From Acanthochromis polyacanthus (taxonomy: Eukaryota > Chordata > Actinopteri > Pomacentridae): a stretch of DNA of 64,000 nt. The notes under the pieces are model-generated. The model saw nothing but the letters and a program-made list of their open reading frames with translations. It made no database searches and was not told the DNA's origin. A program made the position numbers and the translations under genes. The stretch spans positions 39,447,936-39,511,935 of the forward strand of contig NC_067127.1 of assembly GCF_021347895.1 (NCBI RefSeq), written 5' to 3'. Below, in pieces: positions 9,361-38,937 of the stretch (position 1 is the stretch's first letter; every line of letters starts with the position of its first letter).

Positions 9361-9521
9361 CTTTATTTCCTTCCTGTGCATTAAAATAACACAAAAATCA
9401 GAAGAAAAAAGCCAAAATTGAGCTAATTTTGCAGAAAACTCAGAAAATGGGCCGGACATCTTTGTTGGCACCTGAACTCAGTGTTTGGTTTCCACCCTTT
9501 GGAGGAAAAAACTGAAAGCAG

Positions 9522-9818: not shown

Positions 9819-9828
9819 GAAAACGAAC

Positions 9829-11475: not shown

Positions 11476-11644
11476 CGTTGTGACTGTGAGTGTGTACATG
11501 AATTTAAACCAAACCTTCAGACATGTTGGGGTGTTTCCAACCAGCAGGAGTTCTCAAACTGATGCTGAAATCAATGTTTTATCAGTAAACATCATTTGTG
11601 TTTGTCAGACAGTTCTAAACATGAGTTGTTCTTATTATCTGTCA

Positions 11645-11744
11645 NNNNNNNNNNNNNNNNNNNNNNNNNNNNNNNNNNNNNNNNNNNNNNNNNNNNNNNN
11701 NNNNNNNNNNNNNNNNNNNNNNNNNNNNNNNNNNNNNNNNNNNN
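11645..11744. other. Assembly gap (100 N)
   Basis: Exactly 100 N characters, a length often used for a gap of unknown size. Single-copy DNA lies on the left and satellite on the right, so the true distance and even the adjacency are not established. Confidence 0.98.
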
Positions 11745-14700
11745 AGTGAGATTGGCATAGGGAGGATAGCAGTGAGTCAGATACGGAGTATAGCTCGGTG
11801 GGTGAGTGAGATAGGGAGTATAGGAGTGAGTGAGAAAGGCCAAGGAGTATAGCTCAGTGGGTAGAGCGACTGGCTGGCACCCGGGAGGCTGGGGATCGAT
11901 TCCAGGTGTGAGTGAGTGAGATTGGCATAGGGAGGACAGCAGTGAGTGAGATAGGCTTAGGGAGTATCGGAGTGAGTGAGATAGGCGTAGGGAGTATAGC
12001 TCAGTGGGTGGGTGAGATAGGCATAGGGAGTATAGTTCAGTCGGTGAGTGAGAAAGTAATAGGGAGTATAGCTCAGTGGGAAGAGTGGCTGGCTGGCACC
12101 CGGGAGGCCGGGGTTCGATTCCAGGTGGGAGTGAGTGAGATAGGCATAGGGAGTATAGCTCAGTGGGAAGAGTGGCTGGCTGGCACCCGGGAGGCCGGGG
12201 TTCGATTCCAGGTGTGAGTGAGATAGGCATAGGGAGTATAGGAGTGACTGAGTGAGTGAGATAGGCAGAGGGAGGATTGCAGCCAGTCAGTGAGATAGGG
12301 AGCATAGCTCACTGGGTGAGTGAGATAGGCATAGGCAGTATAGCTCAGTGGGTAGAAGGCTGGCTGTCACCCGGGAGACCGGGGATCGATTCCAGGTGTG
12401 AGTGAGTGAGAGTGGCATAGGGAGGATAGCAGTGAGTGAGTGAGTGACATAGGCATAGGGAGTATATCTCAGTGGGAAGAGTGGCTGGCTGGCACCCGGG
12501 AGGCCGGGGTTCGATTCCAGGTGTGAGTGAGTGAGATTGGCATAGGGAGGATAGCAGTGAGTGAGATAGGGAGTATAGCTCAGGGGTGAATGAGATAGGG
12601 AGTATAGGAGTGAGTGAGAAAGGCCAAGGAGTATAGCTCAGTGGGTAGAGTGACTGGCTGGCACCCGGGAGGCTGGGGATCGATTCCAGTGAGTGAGTGA
12701 GATTGGCATAGGGAGGATAGCTCAGTGAGTGAGAGATTGGCATAGGGAGGATAGCAGTGAGTGAGATAGGGAGTATAGCTCAGTGGGTGAGTGTGAGAGG
12801 GAGTATAGGAGTGAGTGAGAAAGGCCAAGGAGTATAGCTCAGGGGTAGAGTGACTGGCTGGCACCTGGGAGGCTGGGGATCGATTCCAGTGTGTGAGTGA
12901 GTGAGATTGGCATCGGGAGGATAGCAGTGAGTGAGATAGGGAGTATCGCTCAGTGGGTGAGTGAGATAGGGAGTATAAGAGTGAGTAAGAAAGGCCAAGG
13001 AGTTTTGCTCAGTGGGTAGAGTGACTGGCTGGCACCCGGAGGCTGGGGATCGATTCCAGGTGTGAGTGAGTGAGATTGGCATAGGGAGGATAGCAGTGAG
13101 TGAGATAGGGAGTATAGCTCAGTGGGTGAGTGTGAGAGGAGTATCGGAGTGAGAGAAAGGCCAAGGAGTATAGCTCAGTGGGTAGAGTGACTGGCTGGCA
13201 CCCGGGAGGCTGGGGATCGATTCAAGTTGTGAGTGAGATTGGCATAGGGAGGATAGCAGTGAGTGAGATAGGGAGTATAGCTCAGTGGGTGAGTGAGATA
13301 GGGAGTATAGGAGTGAGTGAGAAAGGCCAAGGAGTATAGCTCAGTGGGTAGAGTGACTGGCTGGCACCCGGGAGGTTGGGTATCGATTAAAGGTGTGAGT
13401 GAGAAAGATTGGCATAGGGAGGATAGCAGTGAGTGAGATAGGGAGTATAGCTCAGTGGTGAGTAGATAGGGAGTATAGCTCAGTGGTGAGTGTGATAGGG
13501 AGTATAGGAGTTAGTGAGAAAGGCCAAGGAGTATAGCTCAGGGGGTAGAGTGTCTGGCTGGCACCCGGGAGGCTGGGGATCGATTCCAGGTGTGAGTGAG
13601 ATTGGCATCGGGAGGATAGCAGTGAGTGAGATAGGGAGTATCGCTCAGTGGGTGAGTGAGATAGGGAGTATAGGAGTGAGTGAGAAAGGCCAAGTATAGC
13701 TCAGTGGGTGAGTGTGATAGGGAGTATAGGAGTGAGAAAGGCCAAGGAGTATAGCTCAGTGGGTAGAGTGACTGGCTGGCACCTGGGAGGCTGGGGATCG
13801 ATTCCAGTGTGGAGTGAGTGAGATTGGCATAGGGAGGATAGCCAAAATCAGTGAGATAGGGAGTATAGCAGTGGGTAGTGTGATAGGGAGTATAGCTCAG
13901 TGGTGAGTGTGATAGGGAGTATAGGAGTGAGTGAGAAAGGCAAGGAGTATAGCTCAGTGGGTAGAGTGACTGGCTGGCACCCGGAGGCTGGGGATCGATT
14001 TCCAGTGTGAGTGAGTGAGATTGGCATAGGGAGGATAGCAGTGAGTGAGTGAATAGGGAGTATAGCTCAGTGGTGAGTGAGATAGGGAGTATTAACGAGT
14101 GAGTGAGAATGGCCAAGGAGTATAGCTCAGTGGGTAGAGTGGCTGGCTGGCACCCTGGGAGGCTGGGATCGATTCCAGGTGTGAGTGAGTGAGATTGGCA
14201 TAGGGAGGATAGCAGTGAGTCAGATAGGAGTATAGCTCAGTGGGTGAGTGAGATAGGGAATATAGGAGTGAGTGAGAAAGGCCAAGGAGTATAGCTCAGT
14301 GGGTAGAGTGACTGGCTGGCACCCGGGAGGCTGGGGATCGATTCCAGGTGTGAGTGAGTGAGATTGGCATAGGGAGGACAGCAGTGAGAGAGTGAGATAC
14401 GCTTAGGGAGTATCGGAGTGAGTGAGATAGGCGTAGGGAGTATAGCTCAGTGGGTGGGTGAGATAGGCATAGGGAGTATAGTTCAGTCGGTGAGTGAGAA
14501 AGTAATAGGGAGTATAGCTCAGTGGGAAGAGTGGCTGGCTGGCACCCGGGAGGCCGGGGTTCGATTCCAGGTGGGAGTGAGTGAGATAGGCATAGGGAGT
14601 ATAGCTCAGTGGGAAGAGTGGCTGGCTGGCACCCGGGAGGCCGGGGTTCGATTCCAGGTGTGAGTGAGATAGGCATAGGGAGTATAGGAGTGACTGAGTG

Positions 14701-17700: not shown

Positions 17701-18633
17701 GAGATTGGCATAGGGAGGATAGCAGTGAGTGAGATAGGGAGTATCGCTCAATGGGTGAGTGTGATAGGGAGTACAGCTCAGTGGGTGAGTGAGATAGGGA
17801 GTATAGGAGTGAGTGAGAAAGGCCAAGGAGTATAGCTCAGTGGGTGAGTGTGATAGGGAGTATAGGAGTGAGTGAGAAAGGCCAAGGAGTATAGCTCAGT
17901 GGGTAGAGTGACTGGCTGGCACCCGGGAGGCTGGGGATCGATTCCAGTTGTGAGTGAGTGAGATTGGCATAGGGAGGATAGCAGTGAGTGAGATAGGGAG
18001 TATAGCTCAGTGGGTGAGTGTGATAGGGAGTATAGGAGTGAGTGAGAAAGGCCAAGGAGTATAGCTCAGTGGGTAGAGTGACTGGCTGGCACCCGGGAGG
18101 CTGGGGATCGATTCCAAGTGTGAGTGAGTGAGATTGGCATAGGGAGGATAGCTCAGTGGGTGAGTGAGACAGGGAGTATAGCTCAGTGGGTGAGTGAGAT
18201 AAGCATAGAGATTATAGGAGTGAGTGAGTGTGGTTGGCCAAGGAGTATAGCTCAGTGGGTAGAGTGGCTGGCTAGCACCTGGGAGGCTGGGGATCGATTC
18301 CAGGTGTGAGTGAGTGAGATTGGCATAGGGAGGATAGCAGTGAGTGAGATAGGGAGTATAGCTCAGTGGGTGAGTGAGATAGGGAATATAGGAGTGAGTG
18401 AGAAAGGCCAAGGAGTATAGCTCAGTGGGTAGAGTGACTGGCTGGCACCCGGGAGGCTGGGGATCGATTCCAGGTGTGAGTGAGTGAGATTGGCATAGGG
18501 AGGACAGCAGTGAGTGAGTGAGATACGCTTAGGGAGTATCGGAGTGAGTGAGATAGGCGTAGGGAGTATAGCTCAGTGGGTGGGTGAGATAGGCATAGGG
18601 AGTATAGTTCAGTCGGTGAGTGAGAAAGTAATA

Positions 18634-18697
18634 GGGAGTATAGCTCAGTGGGAAGAGTGGCTGGCTGGCACCCGGGAGGCCGGGGTTCGATTCCAGG
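18634..18697 (+). repeat. Example tRNA-like unit with intact A- and B-boxes
   Basis: In tRNA numbering this copy reads GGGAGTA (1-7), TA, GCTC/GAGT D-stem with an AGTGGGAA loop, G26, anticodon stem GCTGG/CCGGG (four of five pairs), loop CTGGCAC with anticodon-position GGC (18667-18669), variable AGGC-type loop, and a T-arm with TTCGATT. The T-stem pairs poorly. The sequence after it (TGTGAGT) cannot pair with the acceptor 5' strand, so this is a tRNA-derived module like the head of a SINE, not a working tRNA gene. The 5' half resembles tRNA-Cys by eye, but the anticodon position would decode alanine. The parent tRNA is unresolved. Confidence 0.7.
18641..18694 (+). promoter_or_regulatory. Pol III type-2 internal promoter boxes (example copy)
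   Basis: TAGCTCAGTGGG at 18641-18652 matches the A-box consensus TRGCNNAGYNGG at every position. GGTTCGATTCC at 18684-18694 matches the B-box consensus GGTTCGANTCC at every position. Their starts are 43 bp apart, as in a real tRNA gene. The same exact pair recurs in the marker blocks along the array, while the commoner monomer has GGATCGATTCC instead. Whether transcription factor IIIC binds is unknown. Confidence 0.65.
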
Positions 18698-21600
18698 TGG
18701 GAGTGAGTGAGATAGGCATAGGGAGTATAGCTCAGTGGGAAGAGTGGCTGGCTGGCACCCGGGAGGCCGGGGTTCGATTCCAGGTGTGAGTGAGATAGGC
18801 ATAGGGAGTATAGGAGTGACTGAGTGAGTGAGATAGGCAGAGGGAGGATTGCAGCCAGTCAGTGAGATAGGGAGCATAGCTCACTGGGTGAGTGAGATAG
18901 GCATAGGCAGTATAGCTCAGTGGGTAGAGAGGCTGGTTGTCACCCGGGAGACCGGGGATCGATTCCAGGTGTGAGTGAGTGAGAGTGGCATAGGGAGGAT
19001 AGCAGTGAGTGAGTGAGTGAGATAGGCATAGGGAGTATATCTCAGTGGGAAGAGTGGCTGGCTGGCACCCGGGAGGCCGGGGTTCGATTCCAGGTGTGAG
19101 TGAGTGAGATTGGCATAGGGAGGATAGCAGTGAGTGAGATTGGGAGTATAGCTCAGTGGGTGAATGAGAGAGGGAGTATAGGAGTGAGTGAGAAAGGCCA
19201 AGGAGTATAGCTCAGTGGGTAGAGTGACTGGCTGGCACCCGGGAGGCTGGGGATCGATTCCAGGAGTGAGTGAGATTGGCATAGGGAGGATAGCAGTGAG
19301 TGAGATGGGGAGTATACCCACTGAGTATAGCTCAGTGGGTGAGTGTGATAGGGAGTATAGCTCAGTGGGTGAGTGAGATAGGGAGTATAGGAGTGAGTGA
19401 GAAAGGCCAAGGAGTATAGCTCAGTGGGTGAGTGTGATAGGGAGTATAGGAGTGAGTGAGAAAGGCCAAGGAGTATAGCTCAGTGGGTAGAGTGACTGGC
19501 TGGCACCCGGGAGGTTGGGTATCGATTAAAGGTGTGAGTGAGAAAGATTGGCATAGGGAGGATAGCAGTGAGTGAGATAGGGAGTATAGCTCAGTGGGTG
19601 AGTAAGATAGGGAGTATAGCTCAGTGGGTGAGTGTGATAGGGAGTATAGGAGTTAGTGAGAAAGGCCAAGCAGTATAGCTCAGGGGGTAGAGTGTCTGGC
19701 TGGCACCCGGGAGGCTGGGGATCGATTCCAGGTGTGAGTGAGATTGGCATCGGGAGGATAGCAGTGAGTGAGATAGGGAGTATCGCTCAGTGGGTGAGTG
19801 AGATAGGGAGTATAAGAGTGAGTAAGAAAGGCCAAGGAGTATAGCTCAGTGGGTAGAGTGACTGGCTGGCACCCGGGAGGCTGGGGATCGATTCCAGGTG
19901 TGAGTGAGTGAGATTGGCATAGGGAGGATAGCAGTGAGTGAGATAGGGAGTATAGCTCAGTGGGTGAGTGTGAGAGGGAGTATAGGAGTGAGTGAGAAAG
20001 GCCAAGGAGTATAGCTCAGTGGGTAGAGTGACTGGCTGGCACCCGGGAGGCTGGGGATCGATTGCAGGAGCGAGTGAGATTGGCATAGGGAGGATAGCAG
20101 TGAGTGAGATAGGGAGTATAGCTCAGTGGGTGAGTGAGATAGGGAGTATAGGAGTGAGTGAGAAAGGCCAAGGAGTATAGCTCAGTGGGTGAGTGAGATA
20201 GGGAGTATAGGAGTGAGTAAGAAAGGCCAAGGAGTATAGCTCAGTGGGTAGAGTGACCGGCTGGCACCCGGGAGGTTGGGTATCGATTAAAGGTGTGAGT
20301 GAGAAAGATTGGCATAGGGAGGATAGCAGTGAGTGAGATAGGTAGTATAGCTCAGTGGGTGAGTGAGATAGGGAGTATAGGAGTGAGTGAGAAAGGCCAA
20401 GGAGTATAGCTCAGTGGGTAGAGTGACTGGCTGGCACCTGGGAGGCTGGGGATCGATTCCAGGTGTGAGTGAGTGCGTGAGATTGGCATAGGGAGGATCG
20501 CAGTGAGTGAGATAGGGAGTATCGCTCAGTGGTTGAGTGAGATAGGGAGTATAGGAGTGAGTAAGAAAGGCCAAGGAGTATAGCTCAGTGGGTAGAGTGA
20601 CTGGCTCGCACCCGGGAGGCTGGGGATCGATTCCAGTTGTGAGTGAGTGAGATTGGCATAGGGAGGATAGCAGTGAGTGAGATAGGGAGTCTAGCTCAGT
20701 GGGTGAGTGAGATAGGGAGTATAGGAGTGAGTGAGAAAGGCCAAGGAGTATAGCTCAGTGGGTGAGTGTGATAGGGAGTATAGGAGTGAGAAAGGCCAAG
20801 GAGTATAGCTCAGTGGGTAGAGTGACTGGCTGGCACCTGGGAGGCTGGGGATCGATTCCAGGTGTGAGTGAGTGAGATTGGCATAGGGAGGATAGCAGTC
20901 AGTGAGATAGGGAGTATAGCTCAGTGGGTGAGTGTGATAGGGAGTATAGCTCAGTGGGTGAGTGTGATAGGGAGTATAGGAGTGAGTGAGAAAGGCCAAG
21001 GAGTATAGCTCAGTGGGTAGAGTGACTGGCTGGCACCCGGGAGGCTGGGGATCGATTCCAGGTGTGAGTGAGTGAGATTGGCATAGGGAGGATAGCAGTG
21101 AGTGAGTGAGATAGGGAGTATAGGTCAGTGGGTGAGTGAGATAGGGAGTATACGAGTGAGTGAGAATGGCCAAGGAGTATAGCTCAGTGGGTAGAGTGGC
21201 TGGCTGGCACCTGGGAGGCTGGGGATCGATTCCAGGTGTGAGTGAGTGAGATTGGCATAGGGAGGATAGCAGTGAGTGAGATAGGGAGTATAGCTCAGTG
21301 GGTGAGTGAGATAGGGAATATAGGAGTGAGTGAGAAAGGCCAAGGAGTATAGCTCAGTGGGTTGAGTGACTGGCTGGCACCCGGGAGGCTGGGGATCGAT
21401 TCCAGGTGTGAGTGAGTGAGATTGGCATAGGGAGGACAGCAGTGAGAGAGTGAGATACGCTTAGGGAGTATCGGAGTGAGTGAGATAGGCGTAGGGAGTA
21501 TAGCTCAGTGGGTGGGTGAGATAGGCATAGGGAGTATAGTTCAGTCGGTGAGTGAGAAAGTAATAGGGAGTATAGCTCAGTGGGAAGAGTGGCTGGCTGG

Positions 21601-23775
21601 CACCCGGGAGGCCGGGGTTCGATTCCAGGTGGGAGTGAGTGAGATAGGCATAGGGAGTATAGCTCAGTGGGAAGAGTGGCTGGCTGGCACCCGGGAGGCC
21701 GGGGTTCGATTCCAGGTGTGAGTGAGATAGGCATAGGGAGTATAGGAGTGACTGAGTGAGTGAGATAGGCAGAGGGAGGATTGCAGCCAGTCAGTGAGAT
21801 AGGGAGCATAGCTCACTGGGTGAGTGAGATAGGCATTGGCAGTATAGCTCAGTGGGTAGAGAGGCTGGTTGTCACCCGGGAGACCGGGGATCGATTCCAG
21901 GTGTGAGTGAGTGAGAGTGGCATAGGGAGGATAGCAGTGAGTGAGTGAGTGAGATAGGCATAGGGAGTATATCTCAGTGGGAAGAGTGGCTGGCTGGCAC
22001 CCGGGAGGCCGGGGTTCGATTCCAGGTGTGAGTGAGTGAGATTGGCATAGGGAGGATAGCAGTGAGTGAGATAGGGAGTATAGCTCAGTGGGTGAGTGTG
22101 AGAGGGAGTATAGGAGTGAGTGAGAAAGGCCAAGGAGTATAGCTCAGTGGGTAGAGTGACTGGCTGGCACCCGGGAGGCTGGGGATCGATTCCAGGAGCG
22201 AGTGAGATTGGCATAGGGAGGATAGCAGTGAGTGAGATAGGGAGTATAGCTCAGTGGGTGAGTGAGATAGGGAGTATAGGAGTGAGTGAGAAAGGCCAAG
22301 GAGTATAGCTCAGTGGGTGAGTGTGATAGGGAGTATAGGAGTGAGTGAGAAAGGCCAAGGAGTATAGCTCAGTGGGTAGAGTGACTGGCTGGCACCCGGG
22401 AGGATGGGGATCGATTCCAGTTGTGAGTGAGTGAGATTGGCATAGGGAGGATAGCTCAGTAGGTGAGTGTGATAGGGAGTATAGGAGTGAGTGAGAAAGG
22501 CCAAGGAGTATAGCTCAGTGGGTGAGTGTGATAGGGAGTATAGGAGTGAGTGAGAAAGGCCAAGGAGTATAGCTCAGTGGGTAGAGTGACTGGCTGGCAC
22601 CCGGGAGGCTGGGGATCGATTCCAGGTGTGAGTGAGTGAGGTTGGCATAGGGAGGATAGCAGTGAGTGAGTGAGATAGGGAGTATAGCTCAGTGGGTGAG
22701 TGAGATAGGGAGTATACAAGTGAGTGAGAAAGGCCAAGGAGTATAGCTCAGTGGGTAGAGTGACTGGCTGGCACCTGGGAGGCTGGGGATCGATTCCAGG
22801 TGTGAGCGAGTGAGATTGGCATATGGAGGACGTGATTGAGTGAGTGAGTGAGTGAGATAGGCTTAGGGAGTATCGGAGTGAGTGAGATAGGCGTAGGGAG
22901 TATAGCTCAGTGGGTGGGTGAGATAGGCATAGGGAGTATAGTTCAGTGGGTGGGTGAGATAGGCATAGGGAGTATAGTTCAGTTGGTGAGTGAGAAAGTA
23001 ATAGGGAGTATAGCTCAGTGGGAAGAGTGGCTGGCTGGCACCCGGGAGGCCGGGGTTCGATTCCAGGTGGGAGTGAGTGAGATAGGCATCGGGAGTATAG
23101 CTCAGTGGGAAGAGTGGCTGGCTGGCACCCGGGAGGCCGGGGTTCGATTCCAGGTGTGAGTGAGATAGGCATAGGGAGTATAGGAGTGACTGTGTGAGTG
23201 AGATAGGCAGAGGGAGGATTGCAGCCAGTCAGTGAGATAGGGAGCATAGCTCACTGGGTGAGTGAGATAGGCATAGGCAGTATAGCTCAGTGGGTAGAGA
23301 GGCTGGCTGTCACCCGGGAGACCGGGGATCGATTCCAGGTGTGAGTGAGTGAGAGTGGCATAGGGAGGATAGCAGTGAGTGAGATAGGGAGTATAGCTCA
23401 GTGGGTGAATGAGATAGGGAGTATGTGAGTGAGAAAGGCCAAGGAGTATAGCTCAGTGGGTAGAGTGACTGGCTGGCACCCGGGAGGCTGGGGATCGATT
23501 CCAGGTGTGAGTGAGTGAGATTGGCATAGGGAGGATAGCTCAGTGGGTGAGTGAGATAGGGGGTAGAGCTCAGTGGGTGAGTGTGACAGGGAGTATAGGA
23601 GTGAGTGAGAAAGGCCAAGGAGTATCGCTCAGTGGGTAGAGTGACTGGCTGGCACCCGGGAGGCTGGGGATCGATTCCAGGTGTGAGTGAGTGAGATTGG
23701 CATAGGGAGGATAGCTCAGTGGGTGAGTGAGATAGGGGGTAGAGCTCAGTGGGTGAGTGAGATAGGGAGTACAGC

Positions 23776-26700
23776 TCAGTGGGTGAGTGTGATAGGGAGT
23801 ATAGGAGTGAGTGAGAAAGGCCAAGGAGTATAGGTCAGTGGGTAGACTGACTGGCTGGCACCCGGGAGGCTGGGGATCGATTCCAGGTGTGAGTGATTGA
23901 GATTGGCATAGGGAGGATAGCAGTGAGTGAGATAGGGAGTATAGCTCAGTGGGTGAGTGTGAGAGGGAGTATCGGAGTGAGTGAGAAAGGCCAAGGAGTA
24001 TAGCTCAGTGGGTAGAGTGACTGGCTGGAACCCGGGAGGCTGGGGATCGATTCCAGGTGTGAGTGAGTGAGATTGGCATAGGGAGGATAGCAGTGAGTGA
24101 GATAGGGAGTATAGCTCAGTGGGTGAGTGTGAGAGGGAGTATCGGAGTGAGTGAGAAAGGCCAAGGAGTATAGCTCAGTGGGTAGAGTGACTGGCTGGAA
24201 CCCGGGAGGCTGGGGATCGATTCCAGGTGTGAGTGAGTGAGATTGGCATAGGGAGGATAGCAGTGAGTGAGATAGGGAGGATCGCTCAGTGGGTGAGTGT
24301 GATAGGGAGTATAGCTCAGTGGGTGAGTGAGATAGGGAGTATAGGAGTGAGTGAGAAAGGCCAAGGAGCACAGCTCAGTGGGTGAGTGTGATAGGGAGTA
24401 TAGGAGTGAGTGAGAAAGGCCAAGGAGTATAGCTCAGTGGGTAGAGTGACTGGCTGGCACCCGGGAGGCTGGGGATCGATTCCAGGTGTGAGTGAGTGAG
24501 ATTGGCAAAGGGAGGATAGCAGTGAGTGAGATTGGGAGTATAGCTCAGTGGGTGAGTGAGATAGGGAGTATAGCTCAGTGGGTGAGTGTGATAGGGAGTA
24601 TAGGAGTGAGTGAGAAAAGCCAAGGAGTATAGCTCAGTGGGTAGAGTGACTGGCTGGCACCCGGGAGGCTGGGGATCGATTCCAGGAGTGAGTGAGATTG
24701 GCATAGGGAGGATAGCAGTGAGTGAGATAGGGAGTATAGCTCAGTGGGTGAGTGTGATAGGGAGTATAGGAGTGAGTGAGAAAGGCCAAGGAGTATAGCT
24801 CAGTGGGTAGAGTGACTGGCTGGCACCCGGGAGGCTGGGGATCGATTCCAGGTGTGAGTGAAAGAGATTGGCATAGGGAGGATAGCAGTGAGTGAGATAG
24901 GGAGTATCGCTCAATGGGTGAGTGTGATAGGGAGTACAGCTCAGTGGGTGAGTGAGATAGGGAGTATAGGAGTGAGTGAGAAAGGCCAAGGAGTATAGCT
25001 CAGTGGGTGAGTGTGATAGGGAGTATAGGAGTGAGTGAGAAAGGCCAAGGAGTATAGCTCAGTGGGTAGAGTGACTGGCTGGCACCCGGGAGGCTGGGGA
25101 TCGATTCCAGTTGTGAGTGAGTGAGATTGGCATAGGGAGGATAGCAGTGAGTGAGATAGGGAGTATAGCTCAGTGGGTGAGTGTGATAGGGAGTATAGGA
25201 GTGAGTGAGAAAGGCCAAGGAGTATAGCTCAGTGGGTAGAGTGACTGGCTGGCACCCGGGAGGCTGGGGATCGATTCCAAGTGTGAGTGAGTGAGATTGG
25301 CATAGGGAGGATAGCTCAGTGGGTGAGTGAGACAGGGAGTATAGCTCAGTGGGTGAGTGAGATAAGCATAGAGATTATAGGAGTGAGTGAGTGTGGTTGG
25401 CCAAGGAGTATAGCTCAGTGGGTAGAGTGGCTGGCTAGCACCTGGGAGGCTGGGGATCGATTCCAGGTGTGAGTGAGTGAGATTGGCATAGGGAGGATAG
25501 CAGTGAGTGAGATAGGGAGTATAGCTCAGTGGGTGAGTGAGATAGGGAATATAGGAGTGAGTGAGAAAGGCCAAGGAGTATAGCTCAGTGGGTAGAGTGA
25601 CTGGCTGGCACCCGGGAGGCTGGGGATCGATTCCAGGTGTGAGTGAGTGAGATTGGCATAGGGAGGACAGCAGTGAGTGAGTGAGATACGCTTAGGGAGT
25701 ATCGGAGTGAGTGAGATAGGCGTAGGGAGTATAGCTCAGTGGGTGGGTGAGATAGGCATAGGGAGTATAGTTCAGTCGGTGAGTGAGAAAGTAATAGGGA
25801 GTATAGCTCAGTGGGAAGAGTGGCTGGCTGGCACCCGGGAGGCCGGGGTTCGATTCCAGGTGGGAGTGAGATAGGCATAGGGAGTATAGGAGTGACTGAG
25901 TGAGTGAGATAGGCAGAGGGAGGATTGCAGCCAGTCAGTGAGATAGGGAGCATAGCTCACTGGGTGAGTGAGATAGGCATAGGCAGTATAGCTCAGTGGG
26001 TAGAGAGGCTGGTTGTCACCCGGGAGACCGGGGATCGATTCCAGGTGTGAGTGAGTGAGAGTGGCATAGGGAGGATAGCAGTGAGTGAGTGAGTGAGATA
26101 GGCATAGGGAGTATATCTCAGTGGGAAGAGTGGCTGGCTGGCACCCGGGAGGCCGGGGTTCGATTCCAGGTGTGAGTGAGTGAGATTGGCATAGGGAGGA
26201 TAGCAGTGAGTGAGATTGGGAGTATAGCTCAGTGGGTGAATGAGAGAGGGAGTATAGGAGTGAGTGAGAAAGGCCAAGGAGTATAGCTCAGTGGGTAGAG
26301 TGACTGGCTGGCACCCGGGAGGCTGGGGATCGATTCCAGGAGTGAGTGAGATTGGCATAGGGAGGATAGCAGTGAGTGAGATGGGGAGTATACCCACTGA
26401 GTATAGCTCAGTGGGTGAGTGTGATAGGGAGTATAGCTCAGTGGGTGAGTGAGATAGGGAGTATAGGAGTGAGTGAGAAAGGCCAAGGAGTATAGCTCAG
26501 TGGGTGAGTGTGATAGGGAGTATAGGAGTGAGTGAGAAAGGCCAAGGAGTATAGCTCAGTGGGTAGAGTGACTGGCTGGCACCCGGGAGGTTGGGTATCG
26601 ATTAAAGGTGTGAGTGAGAAAGATTGGCATAGGGAGGATAGCAGTGAGTGAGATAGGGAGTATAGCTCAGTGGGTGAGTAAGATAGGGAGTATAGCTCAG

Positions 26701-29700
26701 TGGGTGAGTGTGATAGGGAATATAGGAGTTAGTGAGAAAGGCCAAGCAGTATAGCTCAGGGGGTAGAGTGTCTGGCTGGCACCCGGGAGGCTGGGGATCG
26801 ATTCCAGGTGTGAGTGAGATTGGCATCGGGAGGATAGCAGTGAGTGAGATAGGGAGTATCGCTCAGTGGGTGAGTGAGATAGGGAGTATAAGAGTGAGTA
26901 AGAAAGGCCAAGGAGTATAGCTCAGTGGGTAGAGTGACTGGCTGGCACCCGGGAGGCTGGGGATCGATTCCAGGTGTGAGTGAGTGAGATTGGCATAGGG
27001 AGGATAGCAGTGAGTGAGATAGGGAGTATAGCTCAGTGGGTGAGTGTGAGAGGGAGTATAGGAGTGAGTGAGAAAGGCCAAGGAGTATAGCTCAGTGGGT
27101 AGAGTGACTGGCTGGCACCCGGGAGGCTGGGGATCGATTGCAGGAGCGAGTGAGATTGGCATAGGGAGGATAGCAGTGAGTGAGATAGGGAGTATAGCTC
27201 AGTGGGTGAGTGAGATAGGGAGTATAGGAGTGAGTGAGAAAGGCCAAGGAGTATAGCTCAGTGGGTGAGTGAGATAGGGAGTATAGGAGTGAGTAAGAAA
27301 GGCCAAGGAGTATAGCTCAGTGGGTAGAGTGACCGGCTGGCACCCGGGAGGTTGGGTATCGATTAAAGGTGTGAGTGAGAAAGATTGGCATAGGGAGGAT
27401 AGCAGTGAGTGAGATAGGTAGTATAGCTCAGTGGGTGAGTGAGATAGGGAGTATAGGAGTGAGTGAGAAAGGCCAAGGAGTATAGCTCAGTGGGTAGAGT
27501 GACTGGCTGGCACCTGGGAGGCTGGGGATCGATTCCAGGTGTGAGTGAGTGCGTGAGATTGGCATAGGGAGGATCGCAGTGAGTGAGATAGGGAGTATCG
27601 CTCAGTGGTTGAGTGAGATAGGGAGTATAGGAGTGAGTAAGAAAGGCCAAGGAGTATAGCTCAGTGGGTAGAGTGACTGGCTCGCACCCGGGAGGCTGGG
27701 GATCGATTCCAGTTGTGAGTGAGTGAGATTGGCATAGGGAGGATAGCAGTGAGTGAGATAGGGAGTCTTGCTCAGTGGGTGAGTGAGATAGGGAGTATAG
27801 GAGTGAGTGAGAAAGGCCAAGGAGTATAGCTCAGTGGGTGAGTGTGATAGGGAGTATAGGAGTGAGAAAGGCCAAGGAGTATAGCTCAGTGGGTAGAGTG
27901 ACTGGCTGGCACCTGGGAGGCTGGGGATCGATTCCAGGTGTGAGTGAGTGAGATTGGCATAGGGAGGATAGCAGTCAGTGAGATAGGGAGTATAGCTCAG
28001 TGGGTGAGTGTGATAGGGAGTATAGCTCAGTGGGTGAGTGTGATAGGGAGTATAGGAGTGAGTGAGAAAGGCCAAGGAGTATAGCTCAGTGGGTAGAGTG
28101 ACTGGCTGGCACCCGGGAGGCTGGGGATCGATTCCAGGTGTGAGTGAGTGAGATTGGCATAGGGAGGATAGCAGTGAGTGAGTGAGATAGGGAGTATAGG
28201 TCAGTGGGTGAGTGAGATAGGGAGTATACGAGTGAGTGAGAATGGCCAAGGAGTATAGCTCAGTGGGTAGAGTGGCTGGCTGGCACCTGGGAGGCTGGGG
28301 ATCGATTCCAGGTGTGAGTGAGTGAGATTGGCATAGGGAGGATAGCAGTGAGTGAGATAGGGAGTATAGCTCAGTGGGTGAGTGAGATAGGGAATATAGG
28401 AGTGAGTGAGAAAGGCCAAGGAGTATAGCTCAGTGGGTTGAGTGACTGGCTGGCACCCGGGAGGCTGGGGATCGATTCCAGGTGTGAGTGAGTGAGATTG
28501 GCATAGGGAGGACAGCAGTGAGAGAGTGAGATACGCTTAGGGAGTATCGGAGTGAGTGAGATAGGCGTAGGGAGTATAGCTCAGTGGGTGGGTGAGATAG
28601 GCATAGGGAGTATAGTTCAGTCGGTGAGTGAGAAAGTAATAGGGAGTATAGCTCAGTGGGAAGAGTGGCTGGCTGGCACCCGGGAGGCCGGGGTTCGATT
28701 CCAGGTGGGAGTGAGTGAGATAGGCATAGGGAGTATAGCTCAGTGGGAAGAGTGGCTGGCTGGCACCCGGGAGGCCGGGGTTCGATTCCAGGTGTGAGTG
28801 AGATAGGCATAGGGAGTATAGGAGTGACTGAGTGAGTGAGATAGGCAGAGGGAGGATTGCAGCCAGTCAGTGAGATAGGGAGCATAGCTCACTGGGTGAG
28901 TGAGATAGGCATTGGCAGTATAGCTCAGTGGGTAGAGAGGCTGGTTGTCACCCGGGAGACCGGGGATCGATTCCAGGTGTGAGTGAGTGAGAGTGGCATA
29001 GGGAGGATAGCAGTGAGTGAGTGAGTGAGATAGGCATAGGTAGTATATCTCAGTGGGAAGAGTGGCTGGCTGGCACCCGGGAGGCCGGGGTTCGATTCCA
29101 GGTGTGAGTGAGTGAGATTGGCATAGGGAGGATAGCAGTGAGTGAGATAGGGAGTATAGCTCAGTGGGTGAGTGTGAGAGGGAGTATAGGAGTGAGTGAG
29201 AAAGGCCAAGGAGTATAGCTCAGTGGGTAGAGTGACTGGCTGGCACCCGGGAGGCTGGGGATCGATTCCAGGAGCGAGTGAGATTGGCATAGGGAGGATA
29301 GCAGTGAGTGAGATAGGGAGTATAGCTCAGTGGGTGAGTGAGATAGGGAGTATAGGAGTGAGTGAGAAAGGCCAAGGAGTATAGCTCAGTGGGTGAGTGT
29401 GATAGGGAGTATAGGAGTGAGTGAGAAAGGCCAAGGAGTATAGCTCAGTGGGTAGAGTGACTGGCTGGCACCCGGGAGGATGGGGATCGATTCCAGTTGT
29501 GAGTGAGTGAGATTGGCATAGGGAGGATAGCAGTGAGTGAGATAGGGAGTATAGCTCAGTGGGTGAGTGTGATAGGGAGTATCGGAGTGAGTGAGAAAGG
29601 CCAAGGAGTATAGCTCAGTGGGTAGAGTGACTGGCTGGCACCCGGGAGGCTGGGGATCGGTTCCAGGTGTGAGTGAGTGAGATTGGCATAGGGAGGATAG

Positions 29701-30545: not shown

Positions 30546-31160
30546 AGCTCAGTGGGTAGAAAGGCTGGCTGTCACCCGGGAGACCGGGGATCGATTCCAG
30601 GTGTGAGTGAGTGAGAGTGGCATAGGGAGGATAGCAGTGAGTGAGTGAGTGAGATAGGCATAGGGAGTATATCTCAGTGGGAAGAGTGGCTGGCTGGCAC
30701 CCGGGAGGCCGGGGTTCGATTCCAGGTGTGAGTGAGTGAGATTGGCATAGGGAGGATAGCAGTGAGTGAGATAGGGAGTATAGCTCAGTGGGTGAATGAG
30801 ATAGGGAGTATAGGAGTGAGTGAGAAAGGCCAAGGAGTATAGCTCAGTGGGTAGAGTGACTGGCTGGCACCCGGGAGGCTGGGGATCGATTCCAGGTGTG
30901 AGTGAGTGAGATTGGCATAGGGAGTATAGCTCAGTGGGTGAGTGAGATTGGCATAGGGAGGATAGCAGTGAGTGAGATAGGGAGTATAGCTCAGTGGGTG
31001 AGTGTGAGAGGGAGTATAGGAGTGAGTGAGAAAGGCCAAGGAGTATAGCTCAGTGGGTAGAATGACTGGCTGGCACCCGGGAGGTTGGGTATCGATTAAA
31101 GGTGTGAGTGAGCAAGATTGGCATAGGGAGAATAGCAGTGAGTGAGATAGGGAGTATAGC

Positions 31161-34080
31161 TCAGTGGGTGAGTGAGATAGGGAGTATACGAGTGAGTGAG
31201 AAAGGCCAAGGAGTATAGCTCAGTGGGTAGAGTGACTGGCTGGCACCCGGGAGGCTGGGGATCGATTCCAAGTGTGAGTGAGTGAGATTGGCATAGGGAG
31301 GATAGCTCAGTGGGTGAGTGAGATAGGGAGTATAGCTCAGTGGGTGAGTGAGATAAGCATAGAGATTATAGGAGTGAGTGAGTGTGGTAGGCCAAGGAGT
31401 ATAGCTCAGTGGGTAGAGTGGCTGGCTGGCACCTGGGAGGCTGGGGATCGATTCCAGGTGTGAGTGAGTGAGATTGGCATAGGGAGGATAGCAGTGAGTG
31501 AGATAGGGAGTATAGCTCAGTGGGTGAGTGAGATAGGGAATATAGGAGTGAGTGAGAAAGGCCAAGGAGTATAGCTCAGTGGGTTGAGTGACTGGCTGGC
31601 ACCCGGGAGGCTGGGGATCGATTCCAGGTGTGAGTGAGTGAGATTGGCATAGGGAGGACAGCAGTGAGTGAGTGAGATACGCTTAGGGAGTATCGGAGTG
31701 AGTGAGATAGGCGTAGGGAGTATAGCTCAGTGGGTGGGTGAGATAGGCATAGGGAGTATAGTTCAGTCGGTGAGTGAGAAAGTAATAGGGAGTATAGCTC
31801 AGTGGGAAGAGTGGCTGGCTGGCACCCGGGAGGCCGGGGTTCGATTCCAGGTGGGAGTGAGTGAGATAGGCATAGGGAGTATAGCTCAGTGGGAAGAGTG
31901 GCTGGCTGGCACCCGGGAGGCCGGGGTTCGATTCCAGGTGTGAGTGAGATAGGCATAGGGAGTATAGGAGTGACTGAGTGAGTGAGATAGGCAGAGGGAG
32001 GATTGCAGCCAGTCAGTGAGATAGGGAGCATAGCTCACTGGGTGAGTGAGATAGGCATAGGCAGTATAGCTCAGTGGGTAGAGAGGCTGGTTGTCACCCG
32101 GGAGACCGGGGATCGATTCCAGGTGTGAGTGAGTGAGAGTGGCATAGGGAGGATAGCAGTGAGTGAGTGAGTGAGATAGGCATAGGGAGTATATCTCAGT
32201 GGGAAGAGTGGCTGGCTGGCACCCGGGAGGCCGGGGTTCGATTCCAGGTGTGAGTGAGTGAGATTGGCATAGGGAGGATAGCAGTGAGTGAGATAGGGAG
32301 TATAGCTCAGTGGGTGAGTGTGAGAGGGAGTATAGGAGTGAGTGAGAAAGGCCAAGGAGTATAGCTCAGTGGGTAGAGTGACTGGCTGGCACCCGGGAGG
32401 CTGGGGATCGATTCCAGGAGCGAGTGAGATTGGCATAGGGAGGATAGCAGTGAGTGAGATAGGGAGTATAGCTCAGTGGGTGAGTGTGATAGGGAGTATA
32501 GGAGTGAGTGAGAAAGGCCAAGGAGTATAGCTCAGTGGGTAGAGTGACTGGCTGGCACCCGGGAGGCTGGGGATCGATTCCAGTTGTGAGTGAGTGAGAT
32601 TGGCATAGGGAGGATAGCAGTGAGTGAGATAGGGAGTATAGCTCAGTGGGTGAGTGAGATAGGGAGTATAGGAGTGAGTGAGAAAGGCCAAGGAGTATAG
32701 CTCAGTGGGTGAGTGTGATAGGGAGTATCGGAGTGAGTGAGAAAGGCCAAGGAGTATAGCTCAGTGGGTAGAGTGACTGGCTTGCACCCGGGAGGCTGGG
32801 GATCGGTTCCAGGTGTGAGTGAGTGAGATTGGCATAGGGAGGATAGCTCAGTGGGTGAGTGTGATAGGGAGTATAGGAGTGAGTGAGAAAGGCCAAGGAG
32901 TATAGCTCAGTGGGTGAGTGTGATAGGGAGTATAGGAGTGAGTGAGAAAGGCCAAGGAGTATAGCTCAGTGGGTAGAGTGACTGGCTGGCACCCGGGAGG
33001 CTGGGGATCGATTCCAGGTGTGAGTGAGTGAGATTGGCATAGGGAGGATAGCAGTGAGTGAGTGAGATAGGGAGTATAGCTCAGTGGGTGAGTGAGATAG
33101 GGAGTATACAAGTGAGTGAGAAAGGCCAAGGAGTATAGCTCAGTGGGTAGAGTGACTGGCTGGCACCCGGGAGGTTGGGGATCGATTCCAAGTGTGAGTG
33201 AGTGAGATTGGCATAGGGAGGATAGCAGTGAGTCAGATAGGGAGTATAGCTCAGTGGGTGAGTGAGATAGGGAGTATAGCTCAGTGGGTGAGTGAGATAA
33301 GCATAGAGATTATAGGAGTGAGTGAGTGTGGTAGGCCAAGGAGTACAGCTCAGTGGGTAGAGTGGCTGGCTGGCACCTGGGAGGCTGGGGATCGATTCCA
33401 GGTGTGAGCGAGTGAGATTGGCATAGGGAGGACGTGATTGAGTGAGTGAGTGAGTGAGATAGGCTTAGGGAGTATCGGAGTGAGTGAGATAGGCGTAGGG
33501 AGTATAGCTCAGTGGGTGGGTGAGATAGGCATAGGGAGTATAGTTCAGTTGGTGAGTGAGAAAGTAATAGGGAGTATAGCTCAGTGGGAAGAGTGGCTGG
33601 CTGGCACCCGGGAGGCCGGGGTTCGATTCCAGGTGTGAGTGAGATAGGCATCGGGAGTATAGCTCAGTGGGAAGAGTGGCTGGCTGGCACCCGGGAGGCC
33701 GGGGTTCGATTCCAGGTGTGAGTGAGATAGGCATAGGGAGTATAGGAGTGACTGTGTGAGTGAGATAGGCAGAGGGAGGATTGCAGCCAGTCAGTGAGAT
33801 AGGGAGCATAGCTCACTGGGTGAGTGAGATAGGCATAGGCAGTATAGCTCAGTGGGTAGAGAGGCTGGCTGTCACCCGGGAGACCGGGGATCGATTCCAG
33901 GTGTGAGTGAGTGAGAGTGGCATAGGGAGGATAGCAGTGAGTGAGTGAGTGAGATAGGCATAGGGAGTATATCTCAGTGGGAAGAGTGGCTGGCTGGCAC
34001 CCGGGAGGCCGGGGTTCGATTCCAGGTGTGAGTGAGTGAGATTGGCATAGGGAGGATAGCAGTGAGTGAGATAGGGAGTA
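31161..34080 (+). repeat. Higher-order repeat with 4359-bp offset, copy 1
   Basis: The order of variants here is repeated at 35520-38438: 31161 to 35520, 31576 to 35935, 32071 to 36430 (each 4359 bp) and 33779 to 38137 (4358 bp). The single-base change in offset falls near 37400, where the second copy reads GGCATAGGAGG instead of GGCATAGGGAGG. Confidence 0.75.
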
Positions 34081-35519
34081 TAGCTCAGTGGGTGAATGAG
34101 ATAGGGAGTATAGGAGTGAGTGAGAAAGGCCAAGGAGTATAGCTCAGTGGGTAGAGTGACTGGCTGGCACCCGGGAGGCTGGGGATCGATTCCAGGTGTG
34201 AGTGAGTGAGATTGGCATAGGGAGGATAGCTCAGTGGGTGAGTGAGATAGGGGGTAGAGCTCAGTGGGTGAGTGTGACAGGGAGTATAGGAGTGAGTGAG
34301 AAAGGCCAAGGAGTATAGCTCAGTGGGTAGAGTGACTGGCTGGCACCCGGGAGGCTGGGGATCGATTCCAGGTGTGAGTGAGTGAGATTGGCATAGGGAG
34401 GATAGCTCAGTGGGTGAGTGAGATAGGGGGTAGAGCTCAGTGGGTGAGTGTGAGAGGGAGTATCGGAGTGAGTGAGAAAGGCCAAGGAGTATAGCTCAGT
34501 GGGTAGAGTGACTGGCTGGAACCCGGGAGGCTGGGGATCGATTCCAGGTGTGAGTGAGTGAGATTGGCATAGGGAGGATAGCAGTGAGTGAGATAGGGAG
34601 GATCGCTCAGTGGGTGAGTGTGATAGGGAGTATAGCTCAGTGGGTGAGTGAGATAGGGAGTATAGGAGTGAGTGAGAAAGGCCAAGGAGCACAGCTCAGT
34701 GGGTGAGTGTGATAGGGAGTATAGGAGTGAGTGAGAAAGGCCAAGGAGTATAGCTCAGTGGGTAGAGTGACTGGCTGGCACCCGGGAGGCTGGGGATAGA
34801 TTCCAGGTGTGAGTGAGTGAGATTGGCAAAGGGAGGATAGCAGTGAGTGAGATTGGGAGTATAGCTCAGTGGTGAGTGAGATAGGGAGTATAGCTCAGTG
34901 GGTGAGTGTGATAGGGAGTATAGCTCAGTGGGTGAGTGTGATAGGGAGTATAGGAGTGAGTGAGAAAAGCCAAGGAGTATAGCTCAGTGGGTAGAGTGAC
35001 TGGCTGGCACCCGGGAGGCTGGGGATCGATTCCAGGAGTGAGTGAGATTGGCATAGGGAGGATAGCAGTGAGTGAGATAGGGAGTATAGCTCAGTGGGTG
35101 AGTGTGATAGGGAGTATAGGAGTGAGTGAGAAAGGCCAAGGAGTATAGCTCAGTGGGTAGAGTGACTGGCTGGCACCCGGGAGGCTGGGGATCGATTCCA
35201 GGTGTGAGTGAAAGAGATTGGCATAGGGAGGATAGCAGTGAGTGAGATAGGGAGTATCGCTCAATGGGTGAGTGTGATAGGGAGTACAGCTCAGTGGGTG
35301 AGTGAGATAGGGAGTATAGGAGTGAGTGAGAAAGGCCAAGGAGTATAGCTCAGTGGGTGAGTGTGATAGGGAGTATAGGAGTGAGTGAGAAAGGCCAAGG
35401 AGTATAGCTCAGTGGGTAGAGTGACTGGCTGGCACGCGGGAGGCTGGGGATCGATTCCAGTTGTGAGTGAGTGAGATTGGCATAGGGAGGATAGCAGTGA
35501 GTGAGATAGGGAGTATAGC

Positions 35520-38438
35520 TCAGTGGGTGAGTGTGATAGGGAGTATAGGAGTGAGTGAGAAAGGCCAAGGAGTATAGCTCAGTGGGTAGAGTGACTGGCT
35601 GGCACCCGGGAGGCTGGGGATCGATTCCAAGTGTGAGTGAGTGAGATTGGCATAGGGAGGATAGCTCAGTGGGTGAGTGAGACAGGGAGTATAGCTCAGT
35701 GGGTGAGTGAGATAAGCATAGAGATTATAGGAGTGAGTGAGTGTGGTTGGCCAAGGAGTATAGCTCAGTGGGTAGAGTGGCTGGCTGGCACCTGGGAGGC
35801 TGGGGATCGATTCCAGGTGTGAGTGAGTGAGATTGGCATAGGGAGGATAGCAGTGAGTGAGATAGGGAGTATAGCTCAGTGGGTGAGTGAGATAGGGAAT
35901 ATAGGAGTGAGTGAGAAAGGCCAAGGAGTATAGCTCAGTGGGTAGAGTGACTGGCTGGCACCCGGGAGGCTGGGGATCGATTCCAGGTGTGAGTGAGTGA
36001 GATTGGCATAGGGAGGACAGCAGTGAGTGAGTGAGATACGCTTAGGGAGTATCGGAGTGAGTGAGATAGGCGTAGGGAGTATAGCTCAGTGGGTGGGTGA
36101 GATAGGCATAGGGAGTATAGTTCAGTCGGTGAGTGAGAAAGTAATAGGGAGTATAGCTCAGTGGGAAGAGTGGCTGGCTGGCACCCGGGAGGCCGGGGTT
36201 CGATTCCAGGTGGGAGTGAGTGAGATAGGCATAGGGAGTATAGCTCAGTGGGAAGAGTGGCTGGCTGGCACCCGGGAGGCCGGGGTTCGATTCCAGGTGT
36301 GAGTGAGATAGGCATAGGGAGTATAGGAGTGACTGAGTGAGTGAGATAGGCAGAGGGAGGATTGCAGCCAGTCAGTGAGATAGGGAGCATAGCTCACTGG
36401 GTGAGTGAGATAGGCATAGGCAGTATAGCTCAGTGGGTAGAGAGGCTGGTTGTCACCCGGGAGACCGGGGATCGATTCCAGGTGTGAGTGAGTGAGAGTG
36501 GCATAGGGAGGATAGCAGTGAGTGAGTGAGTGAGATAGGCATAGGGAGTATATCTCAGTGGGAAGAGTGGCTGGCTGGCACCCGGGAGGCCGGGGTTCGA
36601 TTCCAGGTGTGAGTGAGTGAGATTGGCATAGGGAGGATAGCAGTGAGTGAGATAGGGAGTATAGCTCAGTGGGTGAGTGTGAGAGGGAGTATAGGAGTGA
36701 GTGAGAAAGGCCAAGGAGTATAGCTCAGTGGGTAGAGTGACTGGCTGGCACCCGGGAGGCTGGGGATCGATTCCAGGAGCGAGTGAGATTGGCATAGGGA
36801 GGATAGCAGTGAGTGAGATAGGGAGTATAGCTCAGTGGGTGAGTGTGATAGGGAGTATAGGAGTGAGTGAGAAAGGCCAAGGAGTATAGCTCAGTGGGTA
36901 GAGTGACTGGCTGGCACCCGGGAGGCTGGGGATCGATTCCAGTTGTGAGTGAGTGAGATTGGCATAGGGAGGATAGCAGTGAGTGAGATAGGGAGTATAG
37001 CTCAGTGGGTGAGTGAGATAGGGAGTATAGGAGTGAGTGAGAAAGGCCAAGGAGTATAGCTCAGTGGGTGAGTGTGATAGGGAGTATCGGAGTGAGTGAG
37101 AAAGGCCAAGGAGTATAGCTCAGTGGGTAGAGTGACTGGCTTGCACCCGGGAGGCTGGGGATCGGTTCCAGGTGTGAGTGAGTGAGATTGGCATAGGGAG
37201 GATAGCTCAGTGGGTGAGTGTGATAGGGAGTATAGGAGTGAGTGAGAAAGGCCAAGGAGTATAGCTCAGTGGGTGAGTGTGATAGGGAGTATAGGAGTGA
37301 GTGAGAAAGGCCAAGGAGTATAGCTCAGTGGGTAGAGTGACTGGCTGGCACCCGGGAGGCTGGGGATCGATTCCAGGTGTGAGTGAGTGAGATTGGCATA
37401 GGAGGATAGCAGTGAGTGAGTGAGATAGGGAGTATAGCTCAGTGGGTGAGTGAGATAGGGAGTATACAAGTGAGTGAGAAAGGCCAAGGAGTATAGCTCA
37501 GTGGGTAGAGTGACTGGCTGGCACCCGGGAGGTTGGGGATCGATTCCAAGTGTGAGTGAGTGAGATTGGCATAGGGAGGATAGCAGTGAGTCAGATAGGG
37601 AGTATAGCTCAGTGGGTGAGTGAGATAGGGAGTATAGCTCAGTGGGTGAGTGAGATAAGCATAGAGATTATAGGAGTGAGTGAGTGTGGTAGGCCAAGGA
37701 GTACAGCTCAGTGGGTAGAGTGGCTGGCTGGCACCCGGGAGGCTGGGGATCGATTCCAGGTGTGAGCGAGTGAGATTGGCATAGGGAGGACGTGATTGAG
37801 TGAGTGAGTGAGTGAGATAGGCTTAGGGAGTATCGGAGTGAGTGAGATAGGCGTAGGGAGTATAGCTCAGTGGGTGGGTGAGATAGGCATAGGGAGTATA
37901 GTTCAGTTGGTGAGTGAGAAAGTAATAGGGAGTATAGCTCAGTGGGAAGAGTGGCTGGCTGGCACCCGGGAGGCCGGGGTTCGATTCCAGGTGTGAGTGA
38001 GATAGGCATCGGGAGTATAGCTCAGTGGGAAGAGTGGCTGGCTGGCACCCGGGAGGCCGGGGTTCGATTCCAGGTGTGAGTGAGATAGGCATAGGGAGTA
38101 TAGGAGTGACTGTGTGAGTGAGATAGGCAGAGGGAGGATTGCAGCCAGTCAGTGAGATAGGGAGCATAGCTCACTGGGTGAGTGAGATAGGCATAGGCAG
38201 TATAGCTCAGTGGGTAGAGAGGCTGGCTGTCACCCGGGAGACCGGGGATCGATTCCAGGTGTGAGTGAGTGAGAGTGGCATAGGGAGGATAGCAGTGAGT
38301 GAGTGAGTGAGATAGGCATAGGGAGTATATCTCAGTGGGAAGAGTGGCTGGCTGGCACCCGGGAGGCCGGGGTTCGATTCCAGGTGTGAGTGAGTGAGAT
38401 TGGCATAGGGAGGATAGCAGTGAGTGAGATAGGAGTAT
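35520..38438 (+). repeat. Higher-order repeat with 4359-bp offset, copy 2
   Basis: Near-identical second copy of 31161-34080. Its close match implies a recent duplication, or homogenisation by the same process as the 7076-bp pair. The last few hundred bases before the gap become indel-rich. Confidence 0.75.
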
Positions 38439-38837
38439 AGCTCAGTGGGTGAATGAGATAGGGAGTATAGGAGTGAGTGAGAAAGGCCAAGGAGTAATAG
38501 CTCAGTGGGTAGAGTGACTGCTGCACCCGGGAGGCTGGGATCGATTCCAGGTGTGAGTGAGTGAGATTGGCATAGGGAGGATAGCTCAGTGGGTGAGTGA
38601 GATAGGGGGTAGAGCTCAGTGGGTGAGTGTGACAGGGAGTATAGGAGTGAGTGAGAAAGGCCAAGGAGTATAGCTCAGTGGGTAGAGTGACTGGCTGGCA
38701 CCCGGGAGGCTGGGGATCGATTCCAGGTGTGAGTGAGTGAGATTGGCATAGGGAGGATAGCTCAGTGGGTGAGTGAGATAGGGGGTAGAGCTCAGTGGGT
38801 GAGTGAGATAGGGTACAGCTCAGTGGGTGAGTGTGAT

Positions 38838-38937
38838 NNNNNNNNNNNNNNNNNNNNNNNNNNNNNNNNNNNNNNNNNNNNNNNNNNNNNNNNNNNNNNN
38901 NNNNNNNNNNNNNNNNNNNNNNNNNNNNNNNNNNNNN
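38838..38937. other. Assembly gap (100 N)
   Basis: Exactly 100 N. The tRNA-derived satellite stops on the left and the 2.33-kb family begins on the right in mid-unit, so the real junction is not seen. Confidence 0.98.

What the first reader, a model, noticed from the sequence alone, without database searches (positions are those of the whole stretch)
11745..38837. 27-kb satellite built from a tRNA-derived module that still has consensus Pol III promoter boxes
The A-box (TAGCTCAGTGGG) matches consensus fully in most monomers. The B-box matches fully in one subtype (GGTTCGATTCC) and nearly in the others (GGATCGATTCC). A-to-B spacing is 43 bp, as in tRNA genes, and the D- and anticodon arms can still fold. 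The acceptor stem cannot, so these are not tRNA genes. About 130 such modules in the same orientation make a very dense field of potential TFIIIC sites. A satellite that came from a tRNA or SINE head and kept its promoter boxes is unusual. It may be transcribed, or serve as a TFIIIC-bound chromatin element.
Basis: partly seen in the sequence, partly recalled or inferred. Interest (0 to 1): 0.8.

Follow-up and report, generated by a model that had tools for sequence, protein, structure and literature searches.

The report
tRNA-derived satellite DNA array
This stretch is a tandem repeat array built from a broken tRNA-like sequence that still carries tRNA-gene promoter boxes, a kind of satellite DNA already described in amphibians and reptiles, with no clear sign here that the boxes are kept by selection.

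Summary
The array is real. It fills one whole contig (11745-38837, 27,093 bp) between two 100-bp scaffold gaps, so neither array end is visible. It holds 150 modules in one orientation, about 180 bp apart. The A-box is exact in 126 of 150; the B-box is GGTTCGATTCC in 37 and GGATCGATTCC in 96.

The tRNA origin is well supported (5' half nearest recalled tRNA-Cys/Ala, 3' half nearest tRNA-Gly/Asp). The modules are not tRNA genes: ARAGORN finds none and the best Rfam score (21.9 bits) is below the cut-off (29).

About half the bases lie in short units, mostly 24-38 bp, that look like cut-down modules: 183 of 441 keep an A-box, and most have neither box.

The functional claim is weak. Between recent duplicates the B-box does not change detectably more slowly than spacer, and a triple-mutant B-box has been copied onward. 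The A-box varies somewhat less, a modest hint. The + strand has one TTTT in 27 kb, so ordinary short Pol III transcripts are not expected.

tRNA/SINE-derived satellites are known (Xenopus OAX, newt PolIII/TAN, squamate sSats). This is a new member of that kind.

The parts
11745..38837 (+). Whole contig of tRNA-derived satellite: 150 modules plus short units (mostly 24-38 bp), one orientation
11645..11744 (.). 100-bp N scaffold gap at the left edge of the array contig
38838..38937 (.). 100-bp N scaffold gap at the right edge of the array contig
11848..11908 (+). Example module, B-box GGATCGATTCC; Rfam tRNA 21.7 bits
12067..12127 (+). Example module of the GGTTCGATTCC subtype; Rfam tRNA 21.9 bits
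12154..12214 (+). Second copy of the GGTTCGATTCC subtype, 87 bp downstream
13429..13507 (+). Example run of short units with an A-box-like sequence but no B-box (TRF period 28)
18703..22455 (+). Long recent duplicate, copy 1 (99.81% to copy 2, offset 7076)
25779..29531 (+). Long recent duplicate, copy 2
30917..34450 (+). Second long duplicate, copy 1 (98.93% to copy 2, offset 4360)
35277..38805 (+). Second long duplicate, copy 2
19519..19529 (+). One of six triple-mutant B-boxes (GTATCGATTAA); also at 13380, 20280, 26595, 27356 and 31089
13003..13006 (+). The only TTTT on the + strand of the array

Best explanation
A satellite that grew from a tRNA-related sequence (a SINE head or a tRNA pseudogene). 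Its full unit is 83-87 bp: a tRNA-like module of about 65 bp plus a roughly 20-bp GTGAGTGAG-type linker. Internal deletions probably gave the short units, which keep only the tRNA 5' part (direction inferred). Unequal exchange then mixed these and copied blocks of several kilobases (the blocks are shown, the mechanism is inferred). The promoter boxes persist mainly because the array is young and homogenised (inferred), not because each box is selected. TFIIIC may be able to bind the modules, but if so this is probably incidental (inferred).
For: tRNA similarity well above shuffles and sub-threshold Rfam tRNA hits. Unit lengths 83/87 and 24/29/30/36 with shared sequence. Duplicates of 3.5-3.8 kb at 98.93-99.81%. 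B-box changes between seven partly overlapping duplicate pairs 12/935 against 104/12,017 for spacer plus mid-module, p=0.20; nine of the 12 are one triple-mutant allele met three times, and counting each meeting once gives 6/935, p=0.58. In the two non-overlapping pairs 3/451, or 1/451 collapsed, against 23/5717, p=0.43 and 1.0. B-box columns alone not less variable, P=0.116 on non-consensus frequency, 0.644 on alleles per site (69 unique rows of 150). The triple-mutant B-box is in 6 of 150 modules, and two of its sites (19519, 20280) have broken partners in the 7076-bp duplicate. Known precedents.
Against: Module A-boxes change less: 2/1019, p=0.017 over seven overlapping pairs (0/492, p=0.25, in the two independent pairs); column test P=0.004 on non-consensus frequency but 0.143 on alleles per site, and A plus B pooled P=0.007 (unique rows) and 0.016 (all rows) on non-consensus frequency, 0.282 on alleles. 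The B-box CpG is intact in 149 of 150 modules, the module's other CpG in 129. One triple-mutant B-box (31089) has an intact partner in its duplicate. The independent-pair tests have little power. No SINE parent was found because the host genome could not be searched.
Confidence: 0.76

Rival explanations
1. A functional TFIIIC (or Pol III) platform: about one module per 180 bp, close to nucleosome spacing (recalled), recruits TFIIIC as a chromatin boundary or clustering element, with little productive transcription.
For: 110 of 150 modules have both boxes intact at mean spacing 180 bp, median 175, range 83-267. A-boxes in modules vary less than the rest; B-box CpG intact in 149 of 150. TFIIIC binding to SINEs distal to promoters is published (PMC3744447, abstract).
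Against: The B-box, usually held to dominate TFIIIC binding (recalled), is not detectably slower than spacer. A triple-mutant B-box is in 6 of 150 modules and has been carried along in a block duplication. A-boxes of other units also vary no more than background (9/1301, p=0.63). No binding or RNA data.
Confidence: 0.13
2. Active Pol III transcription of the array gives long G-rich read-through RNA, because the + strand lacks terminators.
For: One TTTT in 27 kb of + strand against 14.5 per kb in the flanks; + strand G 11,513 against C 3,018.
Against: Rarity of T-runs follows largely from unit composition (first-order Markov expectation for TTTT is 2.27). No RNA evidence.
Confidence: 0.05
3. 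An ordinary satellite whose resemblance to tRNA is chance.
For: ARAGORN finds no tRNA; Rfam scores are below the cut-off of 29; the fold is no better than shuffles.
Against: Panel alignment 27-29 against shuffled maxima of 16-19; both boxes in register at tRNA-like spacing.
Confidence: 0.03
4. The array contig is wrongly placed in this scaffold, or its internal block duplications are partly assembly errors (not exclusive with the others).
For: The contig is satellite from end to end and joined on both sides by 100-bp N runs; near-identical blocks of 3.5-3.8 kb.
Against: The repeat itself is coherent over 150 modules; placement does not change what it is.
Confidence: 0.15

Closest known systems
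OAX / satellite I of Xenopus
   Same: Tandem repeat with a tRNA-derived central segment (PMC10702118 Background; Pol III transcription recalled)
   Different: PMC10702118 calls its unit too long for a proper satellite; here units are mostly 24-87 bp and the tRNA-like part makes up most of each full unit
PolIII/TAN (Hirt) of the newt Cynops pyrrhogaster
   Same: tRNA-like sequence in a tandem repeat, capable of in vitro transcription
   Different: About 360-nt unit; the original paper was not held
SINE-derived satellites (sSats) of squamates
   Same: Short tandem units cut from tRNA-related SINEs; the snake unit is 67 nt and includes box B
   Different: There the SINE parents are known; here none could be sought. 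Here most units lack box B
Hy/polIII of Hydromantes and Rana/polIII
   Same: Tandem families with Pol III-like or tRNA-like parts; Hy/polIII lacks box B, like the short units here
   Different: Units about 200 and 250 nt
EEEb3 of the hagfish Eptatretus burgeri
   Same: Tandem family that includes a SINE2-like region (passages)
PcH-sat of the limpet Patella caerulea
   Same: Satellite sharing a 118-bp segment with a SINE (abstract)
   Different: 179-bp AT-rich unit; I did not check whether the shared part is a tRNA head

Membership tests
Functional tRNA gene | Recognised by tRNA finders / Rfam gathering score | tested here: not met
   ARAGORN 0 genes in the window; Rfam gathering 0 matches in the window; best 21.9 against 29 bits in 11745-13500
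Functional tRNA gene | Complementary acceptor stem | tested here: not met
   The best Rfam alignments cover model 6-65 of 71 only, outer stem not matched; two of five T-stem pairs broken
tRNA-/SINE-derived satellite | Head-to-tail tandem array | tested here: met
tRNA-/SINE-derived satellite | Unit contains a tRNA-related region with boxes | tested here: met
tRNA-/SINE-derived satellite | Matches an interspersed SINE in the same genome | not tested
   The genome search did not complete; within the window no further A-box with at most 1 mismatch lies outside the array
tRNA-/SINE-derived satellite | Heterochromatic or subtelomeric location | not testable with these tools
   Species and chromosome position unknown
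SINE | Head, body, LINE-derived region and simple-repeat tail | tested here: inconclusive
   Units show a tRNA-like part and a roughly 20-bp linker; no SINE library was compared
Pol III-transcribed gene | T-run terminator downstream | tested here: not met
   One TTTT on the + strand in 27,093 bp
TFIIIC-bound (ETC-like) element | TFIIIC occupancy | not testable with these tools
   No ChIP data

The most novel reading that the evidence does not exclude
The array is a dense TFIIIC-loading field: about one promoter-box module per nucleosome, almost without Pol III terminators, acting as a chromatin element or giving long G-rich Pol III transcripts.
Probability: 0.1. Interest if true: 0.65.

Novelty: new member of a known kind. 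Interest (0 to 1): 0.3.

Why it matters
It adds a resolved example of a satellite grown from a tRNA-like sequence, with full and cut-down units side by side, so the path from module to satellite can be read. If TFIIIC bound it, it would be a natural test of what many clustered TFIIIC sites do to chromatin. As it stands, selection on the promoter is not needed to explain it.

Tried and rejected
Chance resemblance to tRNA: rejected on panel and Rfam scores. Real tRNA genes: rejected. Protein-coding reading of the long minus-strand ORFs in the array (up to 300 aa): a search with one 151-aa ORF gave 1405 word-sharing candidates, none at E<=0.001; I take the ORFs as the satellite read backwards. 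G-quadruplex array: 0 matches to a four-run G3 pattern with loops of 1-7 on the + strand. Absence of T-runs as a selected feature: weak, since the first-order Markov expectation for TTTT is 2.27, though TTT is 3 against 32. A 41-base pattern in viral contigs: 0 hits. Pfam on seven flank ORFs: 0 families at E<=1. Contrast of A-boxes with and without a B-box: weakened on recheck, because 14 of the 134 30-bp units have no A-box; with those left out the 30-bp A-boxes vary less than linker too (0.044 against 0.075), while the 36-bp ones do not (0.083 against 0.079). Literature: nine answered searches. I saw no tRNA-derived teleost satellite in the titles and abstract starts listed, but I opened none of the teleost papers, and most subscription journals are not held.

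Limits of the counts: the column tests used 90 of 110 consensus columns (edges dropped); the unit comparison used units of exactly 30, 36, 83 and 87 bp, 304 of 594; the seven pairs overlap, so the two non-overlapping pairs are given apart; the permissive Rfam run covered 11745-13500 only, 10 of 150 modules; the minus-strand core check allowed up to 4 mismatches and no gaps.

Recalled, from no call: letters of the human tRNAs, the tRNA-Met A54 example, dominance of the B-box in TFIIIC binding, usual nucleosome spacing, TTTT as the Pol III stop, OAX transcription by Pol III.

Full report
What is there. The window holds a 27,093-bp contig made of satellite from end to end, between two 100-bp N gaps at 11645-11744 and 38838-38937. 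The reported start and end are therefore contig ends. The array's true length, its borders and even its placement in this scaffold are unknown. Base composition changes sharply there, with strong G over C skew on the + strand.

Counts. TAGCTCAGTGGG occurs 256 times exactly in the array and never elsewhere in the window or on the minus strand; with at most 2 mismatches there are 351 in the array, of which 207 have no B-box within 65 bp. Anchoring on the anticodon-arm core, so as not to select on the boxes, gives 150 modules, none found on the other strand at up to 4 mismatches. The A-box is exact in 126 of 150, GGTTCGATTCC in 37, GGATCGATTCC in 96, and both boxes are intact in 110. Of the 144 B-boxes found by pattern, 133 start 43 bp after an A-box. 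Modules lie on average 180 bp apart, median 175, range 83-267.

Anatomy. Cutting at the tRNA-like 5' start gives 594 units: 441 short (60 bp or less, 415 of them 24-38 bp) and 153 long, with 13,584 and 13,407 bases. The commonest lengths are 30 (134), 29 (108), 87 (99), 24 (70), 36 (42) and 83 (29). A-boxes with at most 2 mismatches are in 183 of 441 short units and 150 of 153 long ones. The short units share the start and the GTGAGTGAG linker with the long ones and lack the anticodon-to-B-box part, so they look like internal deletions of an 83-87 bp unit; that direction is inferred. Blocks of 3.5-3.8 kb are duplicated at 99.81% (offset 7076) and 98.93% (offset 4360), which shows recent segmental amplification, if not assembly error.

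Is it tRNA-derived? Very probably. In 11745-13500, which holds 10 modules, Rfam's tRNA model gives five hits at E<=10: 21.9, 21.9, 21.7, 18.1 and 16.7 bits; the cut-off is 29, and the best E-value of 0.15 is for all 4227 families. The 5' half is nearest tRNA-Cys and Ala (16-20 for these two, shuffled maximum 13-15), the 3' half nearest tRNA-Gly(GCC) or Asp(GTC) (20-26, shuffled maximum 14-15). This hints at a mixed origin, but 16 human genes are a small panel. They are not tRNA genes. In the three best Rfam alignments the D stem pairs, the anticodon stem has four of five pairs and the T stem three of five. The free fold of two modules is not a cloverleaf and is no stabler than shuffles.

Are the boxes under selection? 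Three tests. (a) Columns over 69 unique rows: A-box non-consensus 0.016 against 0.072, P=0.004, but alleles per site P=0.143; B-box 0.040 against 0.072, P=0.116, alleles P=0.644; A and B pooled 0.027 against 0.072, P=0.007, alleles P=0.282. (b) Unit types, unique rows: in 87- and 83-bp units the A-box varies less than the linker (0.015 against 0.031; 0.019 against 0.067); in 36-bp units it varies as much (0.083 against 0.079); in 30-bp units 0.087 against 0.112 over all, and 0.044 against 0.075 once the 14 units without an A-box are left out. The contrast between units with and without a B-box is thus weak. (c) Changes between long duplicates, seven overlapping pairs: module A-boxes 2/1019, B-boxes 12/935, A-boxes of other units 9/1301, spacer plus mid-module 104/12,017; Fisher p 0.017 for A, 0.203 for B, 0.633 for other A-boxes. 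In the two non-overlapping pairs: A 0/492 (p=0.25), B 3/451 (p=0.43), background 23/5717. Nine of the 12 B changes are one triple-mutant allele met in three comparisons; counted once each, B is 6/935 (p=0.58), and 1/451 (p=1.0) in the independent pairs. The triple-mutant B-box sits in 6 of 150 modules; two of its sites (19519, 20280) are broken in both copies of the 7076-bp duplicate, while 31089 has an intact partner. The A-box hint is modest and open to other causes. The B-box CpG is intact in 149 of 150 modules; the other has become TG in 16 (10 distinct rows). I cannot explain that.

Mechanism. Shown: tandem array, short units, near-identical blocks, intact boxes in most modules, one TTTT on the + strand in 27 kb (flanks 14.5 per kb). 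Inferred: growth by unequal exchange, homogenisation keeping boxes without selection, and no discrete short Pol III product. TFIIIC binding is possible and untested.

Comparison. PMC10702118 (Background read) lists tandem families with tRNA-like parts: Xenopus OAX, newt PolIII/TAN (transcribed in vitro), Rana/polIII, and Hy/polIII without box B; it adds squamate satellites cut from SINEs, such as a 67-nt snake unit with box B. A hagfish tandem family includes a SINE2-like region (PMC9734144, passages). The present array resembles these in build. Whether it is SINE-derived in the strict sense was not tested, since the host genome search did not complete.

Verdict. A true, ordinary-in-kind tRNA-derived satellite with an instructive unit structure; the regulatory reading stays possible but unsupported.

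Noticed in passing
window 38938-64000: A second tandem repeat of about 2.33 kb takes up much of the right flank (e.g. 42837-47508 against 45169-49839, 98.2%, offset 2332); a 107-aa GTG-start ORF recurs at 39000, 43872, 46204, 48537, 50972, 53289, 55613 and 58240, with no Pfam match for the one copy tested.
   Followed up: partly
window 42624-42837: Two 98% copies of a 105-bp unit, next to an ATT/TTA run; such runs recur through the right flank.
   Followed up: no
window 10704-11481: T-rich degenerate short repeats (some in 21-bp steps) just left of the array gap.
   Followed up: no
window 9260-9371 and 9818-9929: 112-nt inverted repeat, 92% complementary, 446 nt apart; possibly a transposon remnant.
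   Followed up: no
window 11745-38837: The CpG in the B-box is intact in 149 of 150 modules, while the other module CpG has become TG in 16 (10 distinct rows).
   Followed up: partly
window 11745-38837: Three main module subtypes coexist (87, 37 and 13 of 150 by six sites); a member of the 13-copy subtype is closest to tRNA-Asp(GTC) in its 3' half.
   Followed up: partly
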